From a virus, in IMG/VR virus record IMGVR_UViG_3300033144_000979, positions 1 to 20,778 of that record: a DNA stretch of 20,778 nucleotides. One strand, 5' to 3'. Shown one piece after another: positions 6,245-20,778 of this stretch (its first letter is position 1; the number at the start of each line of letters is the position of its first letter). Below the pieces are notes generated by a model. The model saw nothing but the letters and a program-made list of their open reading frames with translations, had not been told where the DNA came from and ran no database searches. The position numbers and the translations under genes are program-made.

Positions 6245-6410
6245 CATTCTCCTCATCTAAGTCAATCATCATTGTTTTCATGTATTTATCATAAGCCTTA
6301 TAAAGTACCGGGCCAAGCTTAAGCCGTAGCTTAAGGTTATGATCTTCCACTTTTAAGGTTTTTCTATAGTCCTCAAAGGACTCATCACTTCGTCTAGCTC
6401 TGGCTACCAT
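6081..6410 (-). CDS. Unknown protein, C-terminal half overlaps the next gene
   Basis: 109 aa from the ATG at 6410, which shares an A with the RNR stop (TAATG) and has AAGGAG at 6419-6424, 8 bases upstream. The first 55 residues (RARRSDESFEDYR... to the acidic DLDEEN) look like a normal soluble, helical protein. The final 50 residues, read in a second frame across the DUF6378-like gene, are unusually Arg/Lys rich and look like shadow-frame sequence. A lost stop or small indel may have extended the ORF. No family recognised. Confidence 0.55.
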   Translation of the reverse strand: MVARARRSDESFEDYRKTLKVEDHNLKLRLKLGPVLYKAYDKYMKTMMIDLDEENDAKPDSDTSSRRNFKKPWEHARGLQTPVRSYLQIKGRGRLGKQKRTKAVSKRSS

Positions 6411-6955
6411 TAGCCACACTCCTTCTGCCCTGTTGTAAGGTCAATGAAGCAAGCTGCTTCCCCTTCCTCGTTAGGCTCTGATTTATTGAGTACACCGTAC
6501 CGCTGTCCGGCAGCTCTAAAGGTTGTACAACCCTTCGCTCCACCCTTCCACGCTTTAATGTATATCTCTTTAAAGTCTTCCCAAGTCACATCATCACCTA
6601 CGTTCAGAGTCTTCGAGCAAGCACTGTCTACCCATTTCTGAGCAGCTAACAGCACCCCTAAGTGTTCATCAGGAGTGCATTCGTCAGCCGTCCGCCCCCG
6701 AACTCCAAACTCTCTAAAGCCATAATCTGTGACTGTGTGCACCTCTGCACCTGCATCAGTCTGTATAGTACGCTCGTACTCGTAAGAGAATACAGGCTCT
6801 ATACCAGAGGATACGTTATCCGCAGCCAGTGAGATAGTACCAGTTGGTGCTATCGACAGTAGGTGACTGTTGCGTGAGCCGTGAGCCATGCTCCTTAAGA
6901 AGTGCTTGTGTTTCTTTACTGAGTTGTAGCACAAACTTACTAGCAAGCCAATCAC
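6410..6955 (-). CDS. nrdJ: Class II ribonucleotide reductase, C-terminal part (frameshifted)
   Basis: This frame carries the C-terminal third of the adenosylcobalamin-dependent ribonucleotide reductase. Homologous sequence begins only at HGSRNSHLL (about position 6883 leftward); the first 24 residues of the open frame are not RNR-like. It contains RNSHLLSIAPTGTISL (substrate phosphate-binding region), SSGIEPVF, KGCTTFR and a C-terminal Cys-containing tail (ECG) consistent with the Cys pair that relays electrons. It is out of frame with the N-terminal part because of a 7-bp tandem duplication. No convincing independent start is seen at the junction: the ATG there has GGAG only one base away. 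As written, this is probably not expressed as a separate subunit. Confidence 0.85.
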   Translation of the reverse strand: MIGLLVSLCYNSVKKHKHFLRSMAHGSRNSHLLSIAPTGTISLAADNVSSGIEPVFSYEYERTIQTDAGAEVHTVTDYGFREFGVRGRTADECTPDEHLGVLLAAQKWVDSACSKTLNVGDDVTWEDFKEIYIKAWKGGAKGCTTFRAAGQRYGVLNKSEPNEEGEAACFIDLTTGQKECG

Positions 6956-8120
6956 CCTTAAACATAGGGAATGGCCCTTTATCTGCTGCTATCAGTGCGG
7001 AAGCACTATACGCTACGTTGGCTAGTGTGCGTAGTACCCTAGTTTCAAACTTAATGAAGTCAGGGGAACCATATACTAACCCCATAGCCTCACCTGCGTT
7101 AGCTAGTGCTGTGACACCTAGCCCCATCCTACGCTTCTGCTTAGCCTCAGTCTCCTGAGTAGTCAAGGGGTAGGTAGTCCGGTCTATGATGTTATCCATA
7201 GCCCTAACAACCACAGGTATGTCCGCCTCAAATCTATTCCAATCGAAGTCTATCTTATGTGTAATATTAGGTCTTTCTTTAAAGTACTGTACGAGATTAA
7301 AGCTGCCGAGTAGACACGCACCATTAGGTGGTAGTGGCTGCTCCCCACAGGGGTTGGTAGCCTCTATAGTCTCACAGTAATACAGGTTGTTCATTTCATT
7401 GATACGATCAAGGAACAGTATACCCGGCTCTGCCCAATCCCACGTAGCTCTCATGATCTTGTTGAACAGGTAGGTAGCAGATACCCTGTTATATACCCTA
7501 CCCTCAAACACTAGATCAAAGTCCTTGTCTGCTAGCACAGCCTTCATGAAGTCATCGGTTACACCGACTGACACATTGAACTGTGTTAGGTTGTAATCAT
7601 TTGTCTTAGCCTCAATGAACTCCTCGATATCGGGGTGATCGATTCGTAGCACACCCATTTGTGCACCCCGTCTGTGCCCAGAACTCTTGACGGTTTTACA
7701 CACGGCATCGTAGATTTGCATAAAGGACACCGGGCCGCTGGCCTTACTGTCAAGGGACACAATGATATCCCCCCTTGGTCTGATATTACTGAATCCATAG
7801 CCTATGCCACCTCCAAGGCGCATAGTCTGTGCGGATTGCCCCGCACGTTTCATGATACTTGAAAGGCTGTCTCTAATTGTATCAGACAGGAAGCAATTAA
7901 ACGCTGTAGTCTTCCTTGGACTACCAATTGCAGCCTGCACCCTCCCCGCAGGGAGGAAGGCTTGGGCTAGCAATATCTCTCTTAGGGCATAGAAATGAGT
8001 AGGGTCATCAGCCAGAGTATTTGCTACTCGACTGACTCCTTCCCTAAACGTTTCACCCCTTTGTCTATACTTATCAGCGTGTATCCACTTGGATACTGGC
8101 TGTGTTGGTCCTTGTTCCAT
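6816..8120 (-). CDS. nrdJ: Class II (adenosylcobalamin-dependent) ribonucleotide reductase, N-terminal part
   Basis: Reduces ribonucleotides to deoxyribonucleotides using a radical made from adenosylcobalamin, so it needs no oxygen or small subunit. The 434-aa frame contains FLPAGR, AFNCFLSDT with redox Cys76, GGGIGYGFS, the active-site NPCGEQPLPPNGACL with Asn256, Cys258 (thiyl radical site) and Glu260, and Cys269 as the likely redox partner. It also has RRMGLGVTALA. The reading is native to His411-Gly-Ser-Arg414; the last 20 residues are frameshift product. Removing one of the two 7-bp repeats joins Arg414 to the C-terminal ORF and gives a protein of about 567 aa, a normal size. The ATG follows the upstream stop directly. 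Confidence 0.93.
   Translation of the reverse strand: MEQGPTQPVSKWIHADKYRQRGETFREGVSRVANTLADDPTHFYALREILLAQAFLPAGRVQAAIGSPRKTTAFNCFLSDTIRDSLSSIMKRAGQSAQTMRLGGGIGYGFSNIRPRGDIIVSLDSKASGPVSFMQIYDAVCKTVKSSGHRRGAQMGVLRIDHPDIEEFIEAKTNDYNLTQFNVSVGVTDDFMKAVLADKDFDLVFEGRVYNRVSATYLFNKIMRATWDWAEPGILFLDRINEMNNLYYCETIEATNPCGEQPLPPNGACLLGSFNLVQYFKERPNITHKIDFDWNRFEADIPVVVRAMDNIIDRTTYPLTTQETEAKQKRRMGLGVTALANAGEAMGLVYGSPDFIKFETRVLRTLANVAYSASALIAADKGPFPMFKGDWLASKFVLQLSKETQALLKEHGSRLTQQSPTVDSTNWYYLTGCG
6874..6887 (-). repeat. 7-bp tandem duplication that breaks the RNR frame
   Basis: On the + strand GTGAGCC occurs twice head to tail (6874-6880 and 6881-6887), read as GGCTCAC twice on the coding strand. Both frames encode His-Gly-Ser-Arg at this spot, and deleting one copy makes the coding strand read through HGSRNSHLLSIAPTG without interruption. 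The repeat is therefore the exact cause of the frame change. Confidence 0.9.
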
Positions 8121-13933: not shown

Positions 13934-13979
13934 GTTCTAATCCCTCTCTGAGGTCTTTGCCTTTATCTCGTTTCTTCAT
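13827..13979 (-). CDS. Possible 50-aa basic ORF overlapping the polymerase start
   Basis: A 50-codon ORF starts at an ATG overlapping the helicase TGA (ATGA) and runs 107 bases into the polymerase gene in another frame. The product would be extremely Lys/Arg rich. The first 15 codons occupy the only space between helicase and polymerase, so ribosomes finishing the helicase could restart here and then stop near the polymerase start region. The N-terminal part could be real; the rest is likely a shadow of the polymerase frame. Low confidence. Confidence 0.3.
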   Translation of the reverse strand: MKKRDKGKDLREGLEHAEREYKKFTKRTTRVVKKPKSRPISDRQLRGRGL

Positions 13980-14782
13980 TCAACTCTCATCGTGGTAGTG
14001 TTAAAAAAAACTTGTATAGGGCTTTTGTTGCCCGAGACTTTATTCTTCGCGAATGAAAGAGTACGGATTCCATCAATCTCTTGCTGTATAGTTGCACCGA
14101 TTCCCAACATAAGATCAGTCGTACCCGGTATTCCAACGTTGCTGCCATAAATGTCTCCCCTACCGAGGATTGCTTTCCCATCTGCGCTATCTCCTGCTTG
14201 TGTTATACTTATTGATACAATGTTGTGCTTCTTAGCTAGGTTACGCATACCAGTGGCAGCGTTCTCTAGGCGCACAACCCCGTCCTTATCACCTGTCTCG
14301 ATGTTCCTTATCTGATCAACCATTAATATTTCTGGTTTATGCTTCTGTATTAGACTCTCAATCTCGGGAAAAGTTCCCGGCAATAGTTCAGCCCATATCA
14401 TTTTATCCCATCCTTTGGCTTCTGCAAAGGTCTGAGCCTTCTGATAATGCTTCCGTATAGCCCACTTATCCCTACCCAACAGAGTCACTAAGAACCTCTC
14501 TATTAGATCACTCCGAGGGTCTTCGTTGTGGACATACAATACCTTCCTACCACATTCAATGAAATGCCTAGCCTGATCTAAGGAGAACAATGTCTTCCCT
14601 AGGTCAGTCACAGCATAGATCACCACATGGTGCCCGGGTAATAGCCCACCCTCAAGCTGATTGTTTAAAGCCTCAGGTGTTACAGAGATACGGTTCTCTC
14701 GCTTCCTAGCTTCAAAGATTTCCTTTAGGTCTGGTGCTATAGCTATCTGGTTGTCTTCATCAGCCATAAGAGCACCCGACAC
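13976..14782 (-). CDS. DnaB-like replicative helicase, ATPase domain (second part of split gene)
   Basis: 268 aa covering the RecA-like motor domain: Walker A-like AVTDLGKT (residues about 57-64, where the first Gly of GxxxxGKT is Ala), an Asn-Glu-Asp after a beta strand, Walker B-type EILMVDQIRN, SISITQAG (sensor), and GSNVGIPGTTDLMLG. It should unwind duplex DNA ahead of the polymerase, as a hexamer. The listed start is a GTG without a convincing ribosome binding site; the frame stays open for about 29 codons upstream (helix QTKLEELWNERELL), which fits the linker helix of DnaB. The N-terminal domain is in another frame at 14812-15105. Its TGA lies just before the polymerase gene. Confidence 0.85.
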   Translation of the reverse strand: MSGALMADEDNQIAIAPDLKEIFEARKRENRISVTPEALNNQLEGGLLPGHHVVIYAVTDLGKTLFSLDQARHFIECGRKVLYVHNEDPRSDLIERFLVTLLGRDKWAIRKHYQKAQTFAEAKGWDKMIWAELLPGTFPEIESLIQKHKPEILMVDQIRNIETGDKDGVVRLENAATGMRNLAKKHNIVSISITQAGDSADGKAILGRGDIYGSNVGIPGTTDLMLGIGATIQQEIDGIRTLSFAKNKVSGNKSPIQVFFNTTTMRVE

Positions 14783-14811
14783 TAATAGCTCTCGTTCATT
14801 CCATAGTTCTT

Positions 14812-15105
14812 CTAACTTGGTTTGTTTATTACTGACAAGCGCCTGTGATAGGGGATAGAGGGCTTCTCATATCTATCTATGAGAGTATGAAACATCTCGG
14901 CGTGCTTTGGGACTTCTCTTGACACGCTTTGTTTTAATAGTTCTACATCAATTGAAGTACAAGAGGTGTCCGTGTTGTAGAATGTCCGAAGTAACTTCCA
15001 TATGACCTGCCCCTGATCGGACAGGTCCGGACATATTTTATATCCTTCTAACTGGTCAAACGCATTGCGGTCAAAGACCGCTGCGCTTATTATTTTATTT
15101 TCCAT
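14812..15105 (-). CDS. DnaB-like helicase, N-terminal domain (first part of split gene)
   Basis: 97 aa. The first 83 residues resemble the N-terminal helical domain of phage DnaB-like helicases: an initial KIISAAVFDRNAF helix, DLSDQGQVIWK, SIDVELLKQSV, and PKHAEMFHTLID. After Pro85 the frame degenerates into a short tail and stops. The neighbouring helicase frame continues the expected protein: if one C is added to the CCCC run at 14851-14854, the reading becomes ...KPSIPLSQALVSNKQ and joins the ATPase domain, giving about 376 aa. The ATG follows the upstream gene's TAG directly. The product alone would be an oligomerisation domain without a motor. Confidence 0.75.
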   Translation of the reverse strand: MENKIISAAVFDRNAFDQLEGYKICPDLSDQGQVIWKLLRTFYNTDTSCTSIDVELLKQSVSREVPKHAEMFHTLIDRYEKPSIPYHRRLSVINKPS

Positions 15106-16428: not shown

Positions 16429-16577
16429 TAAGCCACCTTTTTCCAAGTAACCCCATTCTTAATATCAGACATAGTACTTGTACCAACTCCGTATACTTTT
16501 GCTATATGCTTTACTGTACTTCATGCCAGTAAACCCTGTCTAATACCTACTACATTTTTTTCTGTTAACTTTCTCAT
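16428..16577 (-). pseudogene. Small helix-turn-helix gene with an in-frame TGA
   Basis: Forty-nine codons plus TAA in one frame, interrupted by TGA at codon 19 (16521-16523). Before it: RKLTEKNVVGIRQGLLA, the recognised opening of HTH modules found in phage and HNH-endonuclease proteins (KLTxxxVxxIRxLL). After it: HIAKVYGV, TSTMSDIKNG and TWKKV, the two helices and the SxxTxxxIxxGxxW end of the same module. Start (ATGA overlap with the primase, AAGGAG 8 bases upstream) and end (TAATG with the next gene) are both intact, so only the codon itself is wrong. Either a nonsense mutation, a sequencing error or read-through. The product would be a compact DNA-binding protein. Confidence 0.7.
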
Positions 16578-17386
16578 AATTCTAACTCCTTCTGTAATTG
16601 CTCGTGTGTTAAATCTTTAGGGTCATTTGTTAAGCTAACAACCCTAAACGTGTCGAAGAATATACCATACTTCTTCTTAATAGCTATAGCCTTGCCCAGA
16701 GCATCTGGGTCTAATGCTATCACTACATTCTTAGCCCCCCAAGCTAGGAGGTTCTGCACCTTCTTGTCATTCAGATGTGTCCCTAGTAACGCAACACCTT
16801 GTCTGAATCTACTAACCCTTATAGCAGAGATTACATCCTCTACCAGTATTACCCAACCGTTATTGATTGGTGAGGTGTTGTATGCGTAGTGAAGATTACA
16901 AGTCTCTTTTGTCAGGTAGTGTTGAGCCTTAGTATATTTATATCCTAACTCAGACTGTTCCTTATCTTTAAATAGCTTAGTGGTATGACCAAAGTTATTA
17001 CCAAAACTATCAAACAAAGGAAAGATATAACCGTCTTCACCAAAGGTTCTTCGTATACCATTGTTCTTTACCTCATGTGTAGTTAAGTGCCATAAGTCCT
17101 TCAGATTTTCTGGGTCTGCTATCATGGAGGGCTTAGTGTAAGGTCTCGGGGTAAATCCTTGTGCTTTCCCTTTGTCGCCAAAGTTGGCAGGAAGGGAACC
17201 GATCATACCCTGACCGGAGCAACACGCCCTGAAACAATTGTACAATATACCTTCTTCTATGCGAGTCAGTGAGAGACTCGGAGCATAAGGTGGGTCATTA
17301 TCACAGAAGCAACAGTACACCGTTTTACTCTGTCCAACGGGTGTACCAAGTGCTTCCATTTTAATGTACTGTAAACTATTTATCAT
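16574..17386 (-). CDS. DNA primase, T7 gp4A-like (zinc-binding + TOPRIM)
   Basis: 270 aa. The N-terminus has a zinc-binding region with Cys25-x2-Cys28 and Cys51-x3-Cys55 (extra Cys26 and Cys56 alongside). The TOPRIM domain follows: Glu183 in VILVEDVISAIR and Asp226-x-Asp228 in VVIALDPDALGKA, which bind catalytic metal. It makes RNA primers for lagging-strand synthesis; in T7 it is fused to the helicase, but here the helicase is a separate gene about 1.5 kb downstream. The first ATG overlaps the end of the 56-aa Cys-rich ORF; a second at 17359 is possible. The TGA overlaps the start of the HTH gene (ATGA). Confidence 0.92.
   Translation of the reverse strand: MINSLQYIKMEALGTPVGQSKTVYCCFCDNDPPYAPSLSLTRIEEGILYNCFRACCSGQGMIGSLPANFGDKGKAQGFTPRPYTKPSMIADPENLKDLWHLTTHEVKNNGIRRTFGEDGYIFPLFDSFGNNFGHTTKLFKDKEQSELGYKYTKAQHYLTKETCNLHYAYNTSPINNGWVILVEDVISAIRVSRFRQGVALLGTHLNDKKVQNLLAWGAKNVVIALDPDALGKAIAIKKKYGIFFDTFRVVSLTNDPKDLTHEQLQKELEL
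16586..16591 (-). promoter_or_regulatory. Ribosome binding site of the interrupted HTH gene
   Basis: AAGGAG on the coding strand, 8 bases before the ATG at 16577 and inside the primase 3' end. It shows that the HTH gene was, or still is, selected for efficient translation, which makes the in-frame TGA worth checking. Confidence 0.65.
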
Positions 17387-17877: not shown

Positions 17878-18047
17878 TTCTTTTTCCTGTTTCTGTTAAG
17901 TCGATCAGCCTCGTGATCATACTTTTTTAAGGCTGCATAGTTTATATCACAAAGAGGGCAGTGCACAATTGCCCTATAACCTGTATTCTGTGCCAGTGTA
18001 GTTACTGTACTACACTTAGGACAAGCTACTAGCTTCGGTTGCGCCAT
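17874..18047 (-). CDS. Zinc-ribbon protein (57 aa)
   Basis: A 57-codon ORF with two Cys knuckles, Cys9-x2-Cys12 (CPKC) and Cys30-x2-Cys33 (CPLC), separated by 17 residues: a zinc ribbon. The C-terminus is a basic helix ending in Arg-Lys-Lys-Lys. It starts 19 bases inside the GGCT-like gene and its TGA overlaps the next ATG. AGGA lies 8 bases before the ATG. Small zinc ribbons like this bind nucleic acid or act as transcription adaptors; the target here is unknown. Confidence 0.65.
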   Translation of the reverse strand: MAQPKLVACPKCSTVTTLAQNTGYRAIVHCPLCDINYAALKKYDHEADRLNRNRKKK

Positions 18048-18433
18048 AAACCATCCTGTACAACTGCGTCCATGTTCGAGCTATTCATCATAGGATGAAA
18101 GTACATCCACGCTAGGTTGACTACTTCCTCACCGTTAGGCATATCCAATGCCACAGGTATCTGTTCCCTTCTGAAGAAGGTAGGGTGTCCCTCAAGGGAA
18201 TCCATTGCTTCGAAGTCCTCAACTGAGAACACTTCTACCTGTATAGGACAGATGGAGTGGTCTTTGGTTACTCGTGGGAAGCCCCATCCACCGTACATAC
18301 AATAGTGGTGGATTGTACGGGCTGTCCCTATGAACTCAGAGTCACATGCCTGTGTGACACCATAGTTGCTCTCACCCCGCTTAAGGGTTCCGTATACTGC
18401 TACTAATTTACGATGTTGCTGTTTTCTTGGCAT
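18029..18433 (-). CDS. Gamma-glutamylcyclotransferase-like (GGCT/AIG2-like) protein
   Basis: 134 aa from the chosen start. The family signature is clear: KLVAVYGTLKRGESNYG (substrate-binding YGTLxxG loop) at about residues 9-24, and later MDSLEGHP containing the expected Glu acid/base (about residue 82). Members cyclise gamma-glutamyl peptides or amines to 5-oxoproline with release of the other part. The ATG at 18433 is preferred over one 33 bases upstream because it has AGGAAAG-type purines before it and begins right before the domain; it overlaps the 293-aa gene by 26 bases. It lies in the same run as an ATP-grasp ligase, which would make the bond that a GGCT-like enzyme can break or remodel. 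Confidence 0.85.
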   Translation of the reverse strand: MPRKQQHRKLVAVYGTLKRGESNYGVTQACDSEFIGTARTIHHYCMYGGWGFPRVTKDHSICPIQVEVFSVEDFEAMDSLEGHPTFFRREQIPVALDMPNGEEVVNLAWMYFHPMMNSSNMDAVVQDGLWRNRS

Positions 18434-19289
18434 TAGCTTCTTTCCTCGTTTCGATTGTAAATGCAATTAAATTGCCCATTAATTCTTTGTTCACCATCAT
18501 GTGCTTGTTCTTTGAGAACTCAACCATTGGTTTAGGCTTAGCCACATAGCTCATCAAACTGTTCCATGCCCCATAGATACCGGAGGAGTTGTGCACATAA
18601 TAGTACTTGCCTGATATAACCTCTCTTTTAAGTTCCTCGAAGGAATCAGGTGCCATACACATGCAGTTGTCATACTTCAGCTTCATAGCAGGGAAGAACA
18701 CACCTTTCCATAGACTATCCTTGACAGGTGCAGCCATCGATTCAGGGAACCTAGTCTTGTTCATCAACGAGACACAGGACTCAGCATAGGAATCCTCTGC
18801 TGTCACATTGAGTGGGTTACTATAGTGGAGTGTCCGGAGTAAAGCAGTGAAGTAAGATGAACGTACAATAGTCGCATGATACCATGCAGGAACCTTGATA
18901 AGAAAGCCACAAGTTTCCTCTGCATTACCCCAAGGGGCAAGGGTATTACCCATGTCCAGTTGTTCAAAGGTAATCTTAGGTACTGTACCCTTTAAGTTCT
19001 TGTTGACAAGACCCAGCTTCACCAAGACATTAGCAGCAGGTTGTTGGTAGGTGGTGATAACATACTTACCATCCCACCCTGTCTTCAAGGTATCGAACCG
19101 ATACTCTTTCAGACCTATGCCAGTGTGAATGGTGAATAAAGCATCACCATAATACTCGCGGCACTTGAAGACTTGGCATACTGCATGAACCTCCCCATCA
19201 ACTACATTAGCTAACTGTAGCTTATGGCGAGCTGTCTGTCCATTTTCACAGTAAGTTACCGCTGCCCATTTCTTTGTTACTTTTCTCAT
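18408..19289 (-). CDS. Unknown protein between ATP-grasp and GGCT-like genes
   Basis: 293 aa, soluble, no signal peptide or membrane helix. I recognise no catalytic motif. Visible features: Cys14, Cys38 and Cys43 in the N-terminal third, a run of aromatic residues around 61-82, a Cys-Met-Cys-Met near residue 215, and a Lys/Arg-rich end. A Cys-nucleophile amidotransferase would fit the company it keeps, but there is no Cys at residue 2 as in class II glutamine amidotransferases. It is joined head to tail with the ATP-grasp gene (ends and starts at 19289) and overlaps the GGCT-like gene by 26 bases, so the three are probably one functional unit. Confidence 0.75.
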   Translation of the reverse strand: MRKVTKKWAAVTYCENGQTARHKLQLANVVDGEVHAVCQVFKCREYYGDALFTIHTGIGLKEYRFDTLKTGWDGKYVITTYQQPAANVLVKLGLVNKNLKGTVPKITFEQLDMGNTLAPWGNAEETCGFLIKVPAWYHATIVRSSYFTALLRTLHYSNPLNVTAEDSYAESCVSLMNKTRFPESMAAPVKDSLWKGVFFPAMKLKYDNCMCMAPDSFEELKREVISGKYYYVHNSSGIYGAWNSLMSYVAKPKPMVEFSKNKHMMVNKELMGNLIAFTIETRKEANAKKTATS

Positions 19290-20080
19290 TAGACCTCTAG
19301 TTTCTTAAACTCGTTAATGTATGCATCGAATGTGGTGTTAACCATACCCGGTGCGGCGTTTGTTTCACATACAACAGCATCAAGCAGCTCATCTCCCTTC
19401 CATCTCGCTAGAATATCTACACCACAGAAATCTAGTCCTAGCGCGTTGGTAGCTGCCACAGCGATCTGATCTAGCTTGATATCATGCTTGATATCTTTCC
19501 TGCTAAATATCCATCCGTTCTCGTAGCTACGGATGAGTCGCTTGTTATCAATCCCTCGCTTCTCTCGTTCTTCCTTGCTCAGTAATCTTTTCTGAGTTAC
19601 ATCAATGACCCTGTTCTGGAACACATGGACTCTGTACTCATGTGTCTTAGCCCAATACTTAGTATACAGTGGGCAGTCCGGTAAATCGTCAGTGGTCTTA
19701 GGTTTATCGACGATAGTTATACCCCTTCCCTTAGTGCCACAGATAGTATCGCGGCACACTACACGTTTCCACGTAGAGGGTCTGTCCTTATGTTCGGAGT
19801 ACTCAAGGTGAGGCACGTTTCTACTGGCAAGACGCTGGAACGTCTGTATTTTATTAGAGCTTGCCTTAACGCTCATCCAGTGATTGATTATACTAACTCC
19901 AGTAAACCTTAGCATCTCATGCCATTGAGGTTCAGTGCTGCTTCCATAGTTAATCAGAAAGTCACCCCTACAGAGTGCTGTAGGTAGCTGATTATACTTG
20001 AGGATTTTAGCACCTAGCTTTTTGGCAATTCTCCGGGATATTCCGGGAGTGCGTTTAGGTAGGGTATACAGAAATATCAT
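19289..20080 (-). CDS. ATP-grasp ligase (RimK-like)
   Basis: 263 aa. ATP-grasp marks are present: the small-loop CGTKGRGI (residues about 114-121) that covers the ATP phosphates, YTKYWAKTHEYRVHVF with Glu148 and Arg150, GVDIL with Asp222, and VCETNAAPGM with Glu239 and Asn241 (Mg2+-binding ETN of RimK/carboxylate-amine ligases). The expected reaction is ATP-driven joining of a carboxylate to an amine through an acyl phosphate; the substrate is unknown. The N-terminal 60 residues form the pre-ATP-grasp half. ATG overlaps the previous TGA (ATGA). Genes downstream are the 293-aa unknown and the GGCT-like protein, a combination that suggests peptide synthesis or modification. Confidence 0.88.
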   Translation of the reverse strand: MIFLYTLPKRTPGISRRIAKKLGAKILKYNQLPTALCRGDFLINYGSSTEPQWHEMLRFTGVSIINHWMSVKASSNKIQTFQRLASRNVPHLEYSEHKDRPSTWKRVVCRDTICGTKGRGITIVDKPKTTDDLPDCPLYTKYWAKTHEYRVHVFQNRVIDVTQKRLLSKEEREKRGIDNKRLIRSYENGWIFSRKDIKHDIKLDQIAVAATNALGLDFCGVDILARWKGDELLDAVVCETNAAPGMVNTTFDAYINEFKKLEV

Positions 20081-20778
20081 TTCTTTTTATCCTTCGGTGG
20101 GGTGAATAGAAAATCTCCGCATGATTCACAGATGGGAACCATCTTCTCCTTACCATGCTCAATGTAAGACTTCCAAGTGATTGTATCATGGTCCTTCATG
20201 TACAAGTCATGAGTGCAATAGCCACAGCCAGACTTAACAGCAGCCATCCATTCGTCAAGAGAGACATTAGAGGTGCCGATTCTCCATGATCGATTAGCTC
20301 CTCTGCTGCCCGTATCCTTAGTGGAGGTACGGGCCAGTGGCTGTTTTTCTGGGGGTTTCTCCTTTGTCTCGTCGGTAGCAATATCTTCAATGTCCTCCAC
20401 CGCCTCCTCGTAAGGAGTAACGATAAACTCTATCGAGAGGCTCTTAGGTTTCAGACTTACCACCCATTTGTTGGAGTTCTTAATGCGAGTGCATTGAGTG
20501 ATTTCTCCAATGAGGAATATCTCCTCTATATCAGTAGGGGATATTTCACTAGCACCTTCGGCATCAACAATGGCATCCTTCCATTCCATCCACTCCTTGT
20601 GCAGCTTACCATACCTGCTCTTGGTAATGTTAGGCGCAACAAAGCTAATCTCTGGGAAGTCGGCAGACATACCCGTTATCTTACCACCCTTACGAGAGTT
20701 ATCAGCCATCTTAATGTAATCCCATGCATCAGCAAACAGTGTATCACCTTTCTTATAGGCGCAGTCTACCGATGTGAC
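20077..20778 (-). CDS. Unknown protein with C-terminal zinc site (partial, runs off the right edge)
   Basis: The frame is open to the window edge: 23 further codons precede the Met at 20709 and read like normal protein (YKKGDTLFADAWDYIK), so the true start is probably outside. The visible 233 residues hold a compact N-terminal domain, an acidic Pro/Glu/Lys linker (about 128-155 counted from the edge), and a C-terminal part with CGYC and CESC, a likely zinc knuckle, ending in Lys residues. Its TGA overlaps the ATP-grasp start, so it belongs to the same operon. No family recognised. Confidence 0.7.
   Translation of the reverse strand, partial: VTSVDCAYKKGDTLFADAWDYIKMADNSRKGGKITGMSADFPEISFVAPNITKSRYGKLHKEWMEWKDAIVDAEGASEISPTDIEEIFLIGEITQCTRIKNSNKWVVSLKPKSLSIEFIVTPYEEAVEDIEDIATDETKEKPPEKQPLARTSTKDTGSRGANRSWRIGTSNVSLDEWMAAVKSGCGYCTHDLYMKDHDTITWKSYIEHGKEKMVPICESCGDFLFTPPKDKKK

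What the first reader, a model, noticed from the sequence alone, without database searches (positions are those of the whole stretch)
18029..20080. ATP-grasp ligase, unknown 293-aa protein and GGCT-like enzyme in one cassette
The three genes are coupled in order. ATP-grasp ligases make amide bonds; GGCT-like enzymes act on gamma-glutamyl bonds. Comparative work on ATP-grasp amidoligases, from memory, reports phage cassettes that combine these families, with suggested roles in peptide synthesis or protein/cell-surface modification. The middle protein has no family I know and is a candidate for the missing component (substrate carrier, amidotransferase or target). This is the best candidate for an undescribed system here.
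Basis: partly seen in the sequence, partly recalled or inferred. Interest (0 to 1): 0.68.

Follow-up and report, generated by a model that had tools for sequence, protein, structure and literature searches.

The report
New member of phage amidoligase cassette
The three genes are the tail end of a known but untested phage gene set that makes unusual amide bonds, and the unnamed middle protein belongs to a previously unrecognised family, with an invariant cysteine, that was found only next to genes of that set.

Summary
ATP-grasp (19289-20080), the 293-aa protein ("MID", 18408-19289) and GGCT (18029-18433) lie on the minus strand with overlapping start/stop codons. The upstream frame (20077-20778) is the C-terminal tail of a class-II glutamine amidotransferase cut off by the contig end. 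The window therefore holds the downstream end of the phage amidoligase ("peptidoglycan modification") cassette known from phiEco32, PA11, CW02 and RIO-1; that system is not new.

MID is new. It matches no Pfam, NCBIfam, PHROG or PDB sequence family. Its relatives were found in 26 other contigs, including a Leptolyngbya phage. Twenty-two of these were fetched with MID alone, and all 26 carry genes of this cassette close to MID. A profile built without the window copy finds MID at E=2.5e-11; the next hit is at E=0.3. One Cys is invariant, and one His and one Gly are nearly so. A relative folds with high confidence (pLDDT 93) but has no significant PDB match.

Best reading: MID is a dedicated, optional cassette subunit, probably a Cys/His-dependent transferase or hydrolase acting on the amide-linked product. 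Membership in the cassette is well supported; the chemistry is inferred. The strict trio is too narrow, because GGCT is optional.

The parts
20077..20778 (-). C-terminal part of a class-II glutamine amidotransferase (5' end lies off the contig), with a Cys-rich tail (CxxC ... CxxC)
   Evidence: open frame to the contig end; a profile of class-II GATase tails built without the window matches it at E=4.5e-14; single-tail hits E=1.5e-5 and 2.6e-4
19289..20080 (-). ATP-grasp (RimK-like) amide ligase, 263 aa
   Evidence: Pfam RimK E=5e-5; phrog_2599 E=1.7e-49; about 28-34% identical to the cassette ATP-grasp proteins of CW02, CVT22, PA11, T5S1 and phiEco32, with R150, D222 and E239-x-N241 kept
18408..19289 (-). 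MID, 293 aa: member of a new protein family confined, in all cases found, to amidoligase cassettes; invariant C43, near-invariant H233 and G237
   Evidence: profile without the window copy: E=2.5e-11, next hit E=0.3; conservation; gene context in 27 contigs including the window
18029..18433 (-). gamma-glutamyl cyclotransferase-like enzyme (GGCT/AIG2/BtrG type), 134 aa from ATG
   Evidence: Pfam GGACT E=2.4e-17; phrog_2520 E=2.5e-21; keeps the YGTLKRG loop and the DSLEGHPTFF motif with its Glu
16574..17386 (-). TOPRIM primase, the usual right-hand neighbour of this cassette in related phages (not part of the cassette)
   Evidence: Pfam Toprim E about 5e-6 to 2e-5; phrog_47 DNA primase E=1.5e-18; same order in related loci

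Best explanation
The window carries the downstream end of a phage amidoligase cassette: class-II glutamine amidotransferase (cut), ATP-grasp, MID, GGCT. In complete relatives the cassette also has a class-I glutamine amidotransferase (C26), two COOH.NH2-type amidoligases and a ~210-aa protein. SHOWN by sequence: the gene set, its order and coupling, MID as a family that tracks the cassette, and MID's invariant Cys with near-invariant His and Gly. INFERRED from the known families: the ligases activate carboxylates with ATP and join them to amines to build a short gamma-glutamyl or isopeptide-type chain, the amidotransferases supply or move ammonia, and GGCT clips a gamma-glutamyl group as 5-oxoproline. 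INFERRED and weakest: MID uses its Cys, with the His as base, as a thiol nucleophile to transfer the chain onto its target or cut it. This follows the logic of butirosin synthesis, where an ATP-grasp ligase (BtrJ), an acyltransferase (BtrH) and a GGCT (BtrG) act in turn (BtrJ-BtrH-BtrG roles from memory). The target is unknown; published guesses are the cell wall, to block superinfection.
For: Cassette identity: PF14395, PF12224, PF13522, PF07722 and PF06094 in the syntenic relatives L061/L091, annotated relatives in CW02, PA11, CVT22, T5S1 and phiEco32, and the truncated GATase-II in the window. MID family: profile from four relatives without MID finds it at E=1.3e-6, rising to 2.5e-11 with 32 members. 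Linkage: 22 contigs fetched with MID alone, from viral contigs, annotated phages and bacterial bins, all carry cassette genes; in all but one MID lies within 300 bp of a cassette gene. MID tracks the cassette, not the primase: in L167, L170, L171, L176, L179 and L183 no TOPRIM gene was detected near it. Catalytic pattern: C in 28/28, H in 26/28, G in 27/28 aligned members. The Cys sits just before the first helix in a confident model, pLDDT 92.9, pTM 0.90.
Against: No activity is shown for any protein of the cassette here. The distance between Cys and His in the model could not be measured. Two members lack the His (L179 and one L183 copy), and Cys plus His could equally bind metal. No fold match reaches significance. 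MID is absent from most cassettes: 4 of 72 loci that hold both ATP-grasp and primase, so it cannot be needed for the core chemistry. The window copy itself models poorly (pLDDT 60).
Confidence: 0.5

Rival explanations
1. MID is a non-catalytic binding subunit that holds the growing chain or the substrate for the ligases, as the N-domain of cyanophycin synthetase does for its ATP-grasp domain, or it is a far-diverged glutamine-synthetase-fold protein that lost its active site.
For: In the structural re-alignment of the confident model the best rows are glutamine synthetases (Z 5.3, 132 residues, rmsd 4.4) and cyanophycin synthetase N-domains (Z 4.3, 109 residues, rmsd 3.9). The other amidoligases of the cassette are themselves described as glutamine-synthetase-like (Iyer et al. 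2009, as titled in PMC10580990).
Against: Z is below 8, where such matches may be only a common arrangement; the window's own model gives other rows. No profile link to the two amidoligase families: hhalign probability 0.1%. A plain binding role does not explain an invariant Cys.
Confidence: 0.25
2. MID is the acceptor of the modification: a carrier that bears the intermediate on its Cys as a thioester, or the protein target of the ligases.
Against: At 220-300 aa with a compact alpha/beta fold it is unlike small carrier proteins; the conserved His and Gly are not expected for a mere acceptor.
Confidence: 0.15
3. MID is a hitch-hiker of the phage replication region, without a role in the cassette.
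For: It is absent from most cassettes and often lies between ATP-grasp and primase.
Against: Linkage to the cassette in all 27 contigs including the window, in several arrangements, some without a primase nearby, and in a cyanobacterial phage of another lineage. On the ATP-grasp tree the MID label changes at least 9 times (3 forced by well-supported branches), so it is not one clade's accident.
Confidence: 0.06

Closest known systems
Phage amidoligase / 'peptidoglycan modification' cassette (phiEco32, RIO-1, PSA-HP1, PA11, LUZ24, CW02)
   Same: ATP-grasp, GGCT and class-II glutamine amidotransferase, next to the replication genes; full relatives hold COOH.NH2 ligase, Amidoligase_2 and C26 in the same order (PMC5498523).
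   Different: Carries MID, for which no counterpart was found in those model phages (PA11 ORF009 in the same slot is unrelated by BLASTP). The amidoligases themselves lie off this contig and were not seen.
Butirosin side-chain enzymes BtrJ / BtrH / BtrG
   Same: Same logic on paper: ATP-grasp ligase, presumed thiol enzyme, and GGCT that removes a protecting gamma-glutamyl group.
   Different: Analogy from memory only; no homology of MID to BtrH was tested, and no carrier protein was found in the window.
Cyanophycin synthetase N-domain / glutamine synthetase fold
   Same: Weak structural resemblance of the MID relative (Z 4.3 and 5.3).
   Different: Below the significance level; no sequence relation; a conserved Cys/His instead of metal-binding glutamates.

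Membership tests
ATP-grasp amide ligase (RimK type) | curated profile match | tested here: met
   Pfam RimK 23.3 bits against a cut-off of 21; phrog_2599 E=1.7e-49
ATP-grasp amide ligase (RimK type) | Arg of the first kinase-like strand, acidic residue, and ExN motif (as listed in PMC4431377) | tested here: met
   R150, D222 and E239-x-N241 invariant in the alignment with five phage relatives
ATP-grasp amide ligase (RimK type) | conserved lysines that bind ATP | tested here: inconclusive
   the aligned position carries an invariant Arg (R110); the second Lys varies among relatives
GGCT / AIG2-like | profile match, YGxLxxG loop and catalytic Glu | tested here: met
   Pfam GGACT 64 bits against 22.8; YGTLKRG and DSLEGHPTFF present
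GGCT / AIG2-like | release of 5-oxoproline | not testable with these tools
   needs an enzyme assay
Class-II glutamine amidotransferase | N-terminal catalytic Cys (MCG) domain | not testable with these tools
   the N-terminus lies beyond the contig end; only the tail is present
Class-II glutamine amidotransferase | tail shared with cassette GATase-II proteins | tested here: met
   tail profile E=4.5e-14, CxxC...CxxC kept
Phage amidoligase cassette | ATP-grasp, amidotransferase and GGCT side by side | tested here: met
Phage amidoligase cassette | GS-like COOH.NH2 ligase / Amidoligase_2 genes | tested here: inconclusive
   none in the window; the contig ends inside the gene next to where they lie in relatives
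MID family (new) | profile match, invariant Cys, His, Gly | tested here: met
   E=2.5e-11 against a profile that leaves the window out; C43, H233, G237
Glutamine-synthetase-fold amidoligase (considered for MID) | fold match | tested here: inconclusive
   Z 5.3, tied with other folds
Glutamine-synthetase-fold amidoligase (considered for MID) | sequence-profile relation to PF14395 / PF12224 families | tested here: not met
   hhalign probability 0.1%; no Pfam match of that kind among 28 members

The most novel reading that the evidence does not exclude
MID is a new Cys/His enzyme family with no solved relative that performs the final transfer step of the phage amidoligase cassette, joining the amide-linked chain to a cell-wall, protein or DNA target.
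Probability: 0.33. Interest if true: 0.72.

Novelty: new variant of a known kind. Interest (0 to 1): 0.52.

Why it matters
Phage amidoligase cassettes are widespread (the window's ATP-grasp alone matches 242 of 50,697 phage records), yet I found no paper in the held library that tests what they make. A family that tracks these cassettes, carries an invariant Cys and is sometimes present in several copies is a handle on that question: it may mark the transfer or target step, and it gives a point mutant (Cys to Ala) that can be tested.

Tried and rejected
Direct searches with the window's MID found nothing: Pfam, PHROGs, NCBIfam, PDB sequences, 50,697 phage records, viral contigs. The family came only by way of syntenic loci. 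A scan with an alignment headed by the window MID failed, and one alignment was too diverse to search. PA11 ORF009, the 292-aa protein in the same slot, is not related by BLASTP. Stray hits of single members to DUF3212 and phrog_12526 were set aside as chance. Profile-profile comparison with all other cassette families was negative. Fold searches: none significant in PDB; one hit in predicted viral structures, A0A6J5LH58 of an uncultured phage (E=9e-9), probably a family member of unknown function. Weak hits to small phage cysteine proteases in that list (E above 0.3) were noted but not used. Structural rows with Z of 5 or so were not taken as homology. The papers that proposed the cassette's role (Iyer 2009; Hardies 2013) were not held, so I could not check whether they mention MID.

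Full report
What is there. The window is a 20,778-base virus record whose DNA polymerase is closest to Vibrio phages placed in Zobellviridae (42% identity). On the minus strand, reading from the right end, come an open frame that runs off the contig (20778-20077), an ATP-grasp gene (20080-19289), a 293-aa gene called MID here (19289-18408) and a GGCT gene (18433-18029); a primase, helicase, phosphoesterase and polymerase follow.

The frame above ATP-grasp. It has no Pfam match, but its last part resembles the tails of class-II glutamine amidotransferases of related phages. A profile made from 58 such proteins' tails, without the window, matches it at E=4.5e-14 and shows the shared GCxYC...PxCxxC tail. 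The contig therefore ends inside a glutamine amidotransferase gene, and what would lie beyond it is not known directly.

The cassette. In annotated phages the same ATP-grasp lies with glutamine amidotransferase, COOH.NH2 ligase, amidoligase and often GGCT: CW02, CVT22, PA11, T5S1, phiEco32. In environmental relatives the order is C26 amidotransferase, COOH.NH2 ligase (PF14395), a ~210-aa protein, Amidoligase_2 (PF12224), class-II amidotransferase, ATP-grasp, sometimes GGCT, then primase. The literature calls this a seven-gene peptidoglycan modification cassette, hypothesised to alter the host surface and block superinfection (PMC5498523; see also PMC10580990, and PMC11318856). I found no paper in the held library that tests it.

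MID is a family. Searches with the window copy alone found nothing. Among loci fetched by ATP-grasp or polymerase, two proteins in the same slot gave weak hits, E=0.03 and 0.56. Those two match each other at about 2e-7 and bring in a third and, by tblastn, a protein of Leptolyngbya phage Lbo-JY46. A profile of these four, without MID, finds MID at E=1.3e-6 with the next hit at 1.5. After further scans the profile of 32 members, still without the window copy, finds MID at E=2.5e-11 with the next hit at 0.3. No Pfam or PHROG family covers the members and no PDB sequence does.

MID tracks the cassette. Counting each contig once, 27 contigs including the window hold MID, and all hold at least one cassette gene; the nearest lies within 300 bp in 26 of them and at 1.2 kb in L176. 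Twenty-two were fetched by searching for MID alone, so the link was not built in by the search. ATP-grasp was detected in 23 of the 27 stretches. GGCT was detected in nine, plus Lbo-JY46, where it is annotated at the edge of the stretch, so GGCT is optional. In L171, L183, L199 and L200 MID lies directly before the COOH.NH2 ligase and no ATP-grasp was found in the fetched stretch. MID is also optional to the cassette: it was found in 4 of 72 loci with both ATP-grasp and primase; undetected divergent copies could raise this. On an ATP-grasp tree the MID label changes at least 9 times, 3 of them forced by well-supported branches, and is clustered compared with shuffles. Tandem copies occur in several contigs, four in L183.

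What MID may do. In 28 aligned members Cys (C43 in the window) is invariant, His233 is kept in 26 and Gly237 in 27. A model of the 224-aa relative from L189 with 28 sequences is confident, pLDDT 92.9 and pTM 0.90, with a beta-beta-alpha-beta-alpha-beta-beta-alpha core; the Cys sits just before the first helix and the His in the C-terminal helical part. The window copy itself models only at pLDDT 60. Foldseek finds no significant PDB match. A slower re-alignment puts glutamine synthetases (Z 5.3) and cyanophycin synthetase N-domains (Z 4.3) first; at that level a common arrangement is enough to explain it, and the window model gives different rows. Because the neighbours are amide ligases this is a lead worth keeping, not a result.

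Interpretation. That MID is a dedicated part of the cassette I hold at about 0.9. That it is a Cys/His enzyme acting on the amide-linked product is the best single guess, at about 0.5. A binding subunit, a carrier or target, and a hitch-hiker are the rivals in falling order.

Novelty. New variant of a known kind: a known type of cassette with a previously unrecognised family. Whether the fold is new cannot be said from these searches.

Noticed in passing
window 6410-8120 (-): The ribonucleotide reductase gene is split by a change of frame into 6816-8120 and 6410-6955, both matching Pfam PF02867; sequencing error, frameshift or decay not decided.
   Followed up: partly
window 13976-15105 (-): The DnaB-like helicase is likewise split (14812-15105 and 13976-14782) by a frame change; the relative L091 has one intact 395-aa frame. 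Two such breaks in replication genes suggest assembly error or programmed frameshifts.
   Followed up: partly
L061 3424-4062; L006 3990-4538; L037 6505-7239: A second unassigned cassette protein, about 180-240 aa, lies between COOH.NH2 ligase and Amidoligase_2 in many relatives (phrog_11055; phrog_4877 in phiEco32; function unknown).
   Followed up: partly
L183 (four copies), L171, L180, L186, L188, L190, L199, L200 (two each): MID occurs in several, often tandem, divergent copies; some copies lack the near-invariant His.
   Followed up: partly
L167 (Leptolyngbya phage Lbo-JY46, record 21706-38071): A cyanobacterial phage outside Zobellviridae carries MID together with the amidoligase cassette, so the pair crosses phage lineages.
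   Followed up: partly
L199, L200: Contigs binned as Parcubacteria and Stahlbacteria genomes carry MID with COOH.NH2 ligase; they look like phage contigs caught in the bins.
   Followed up: no
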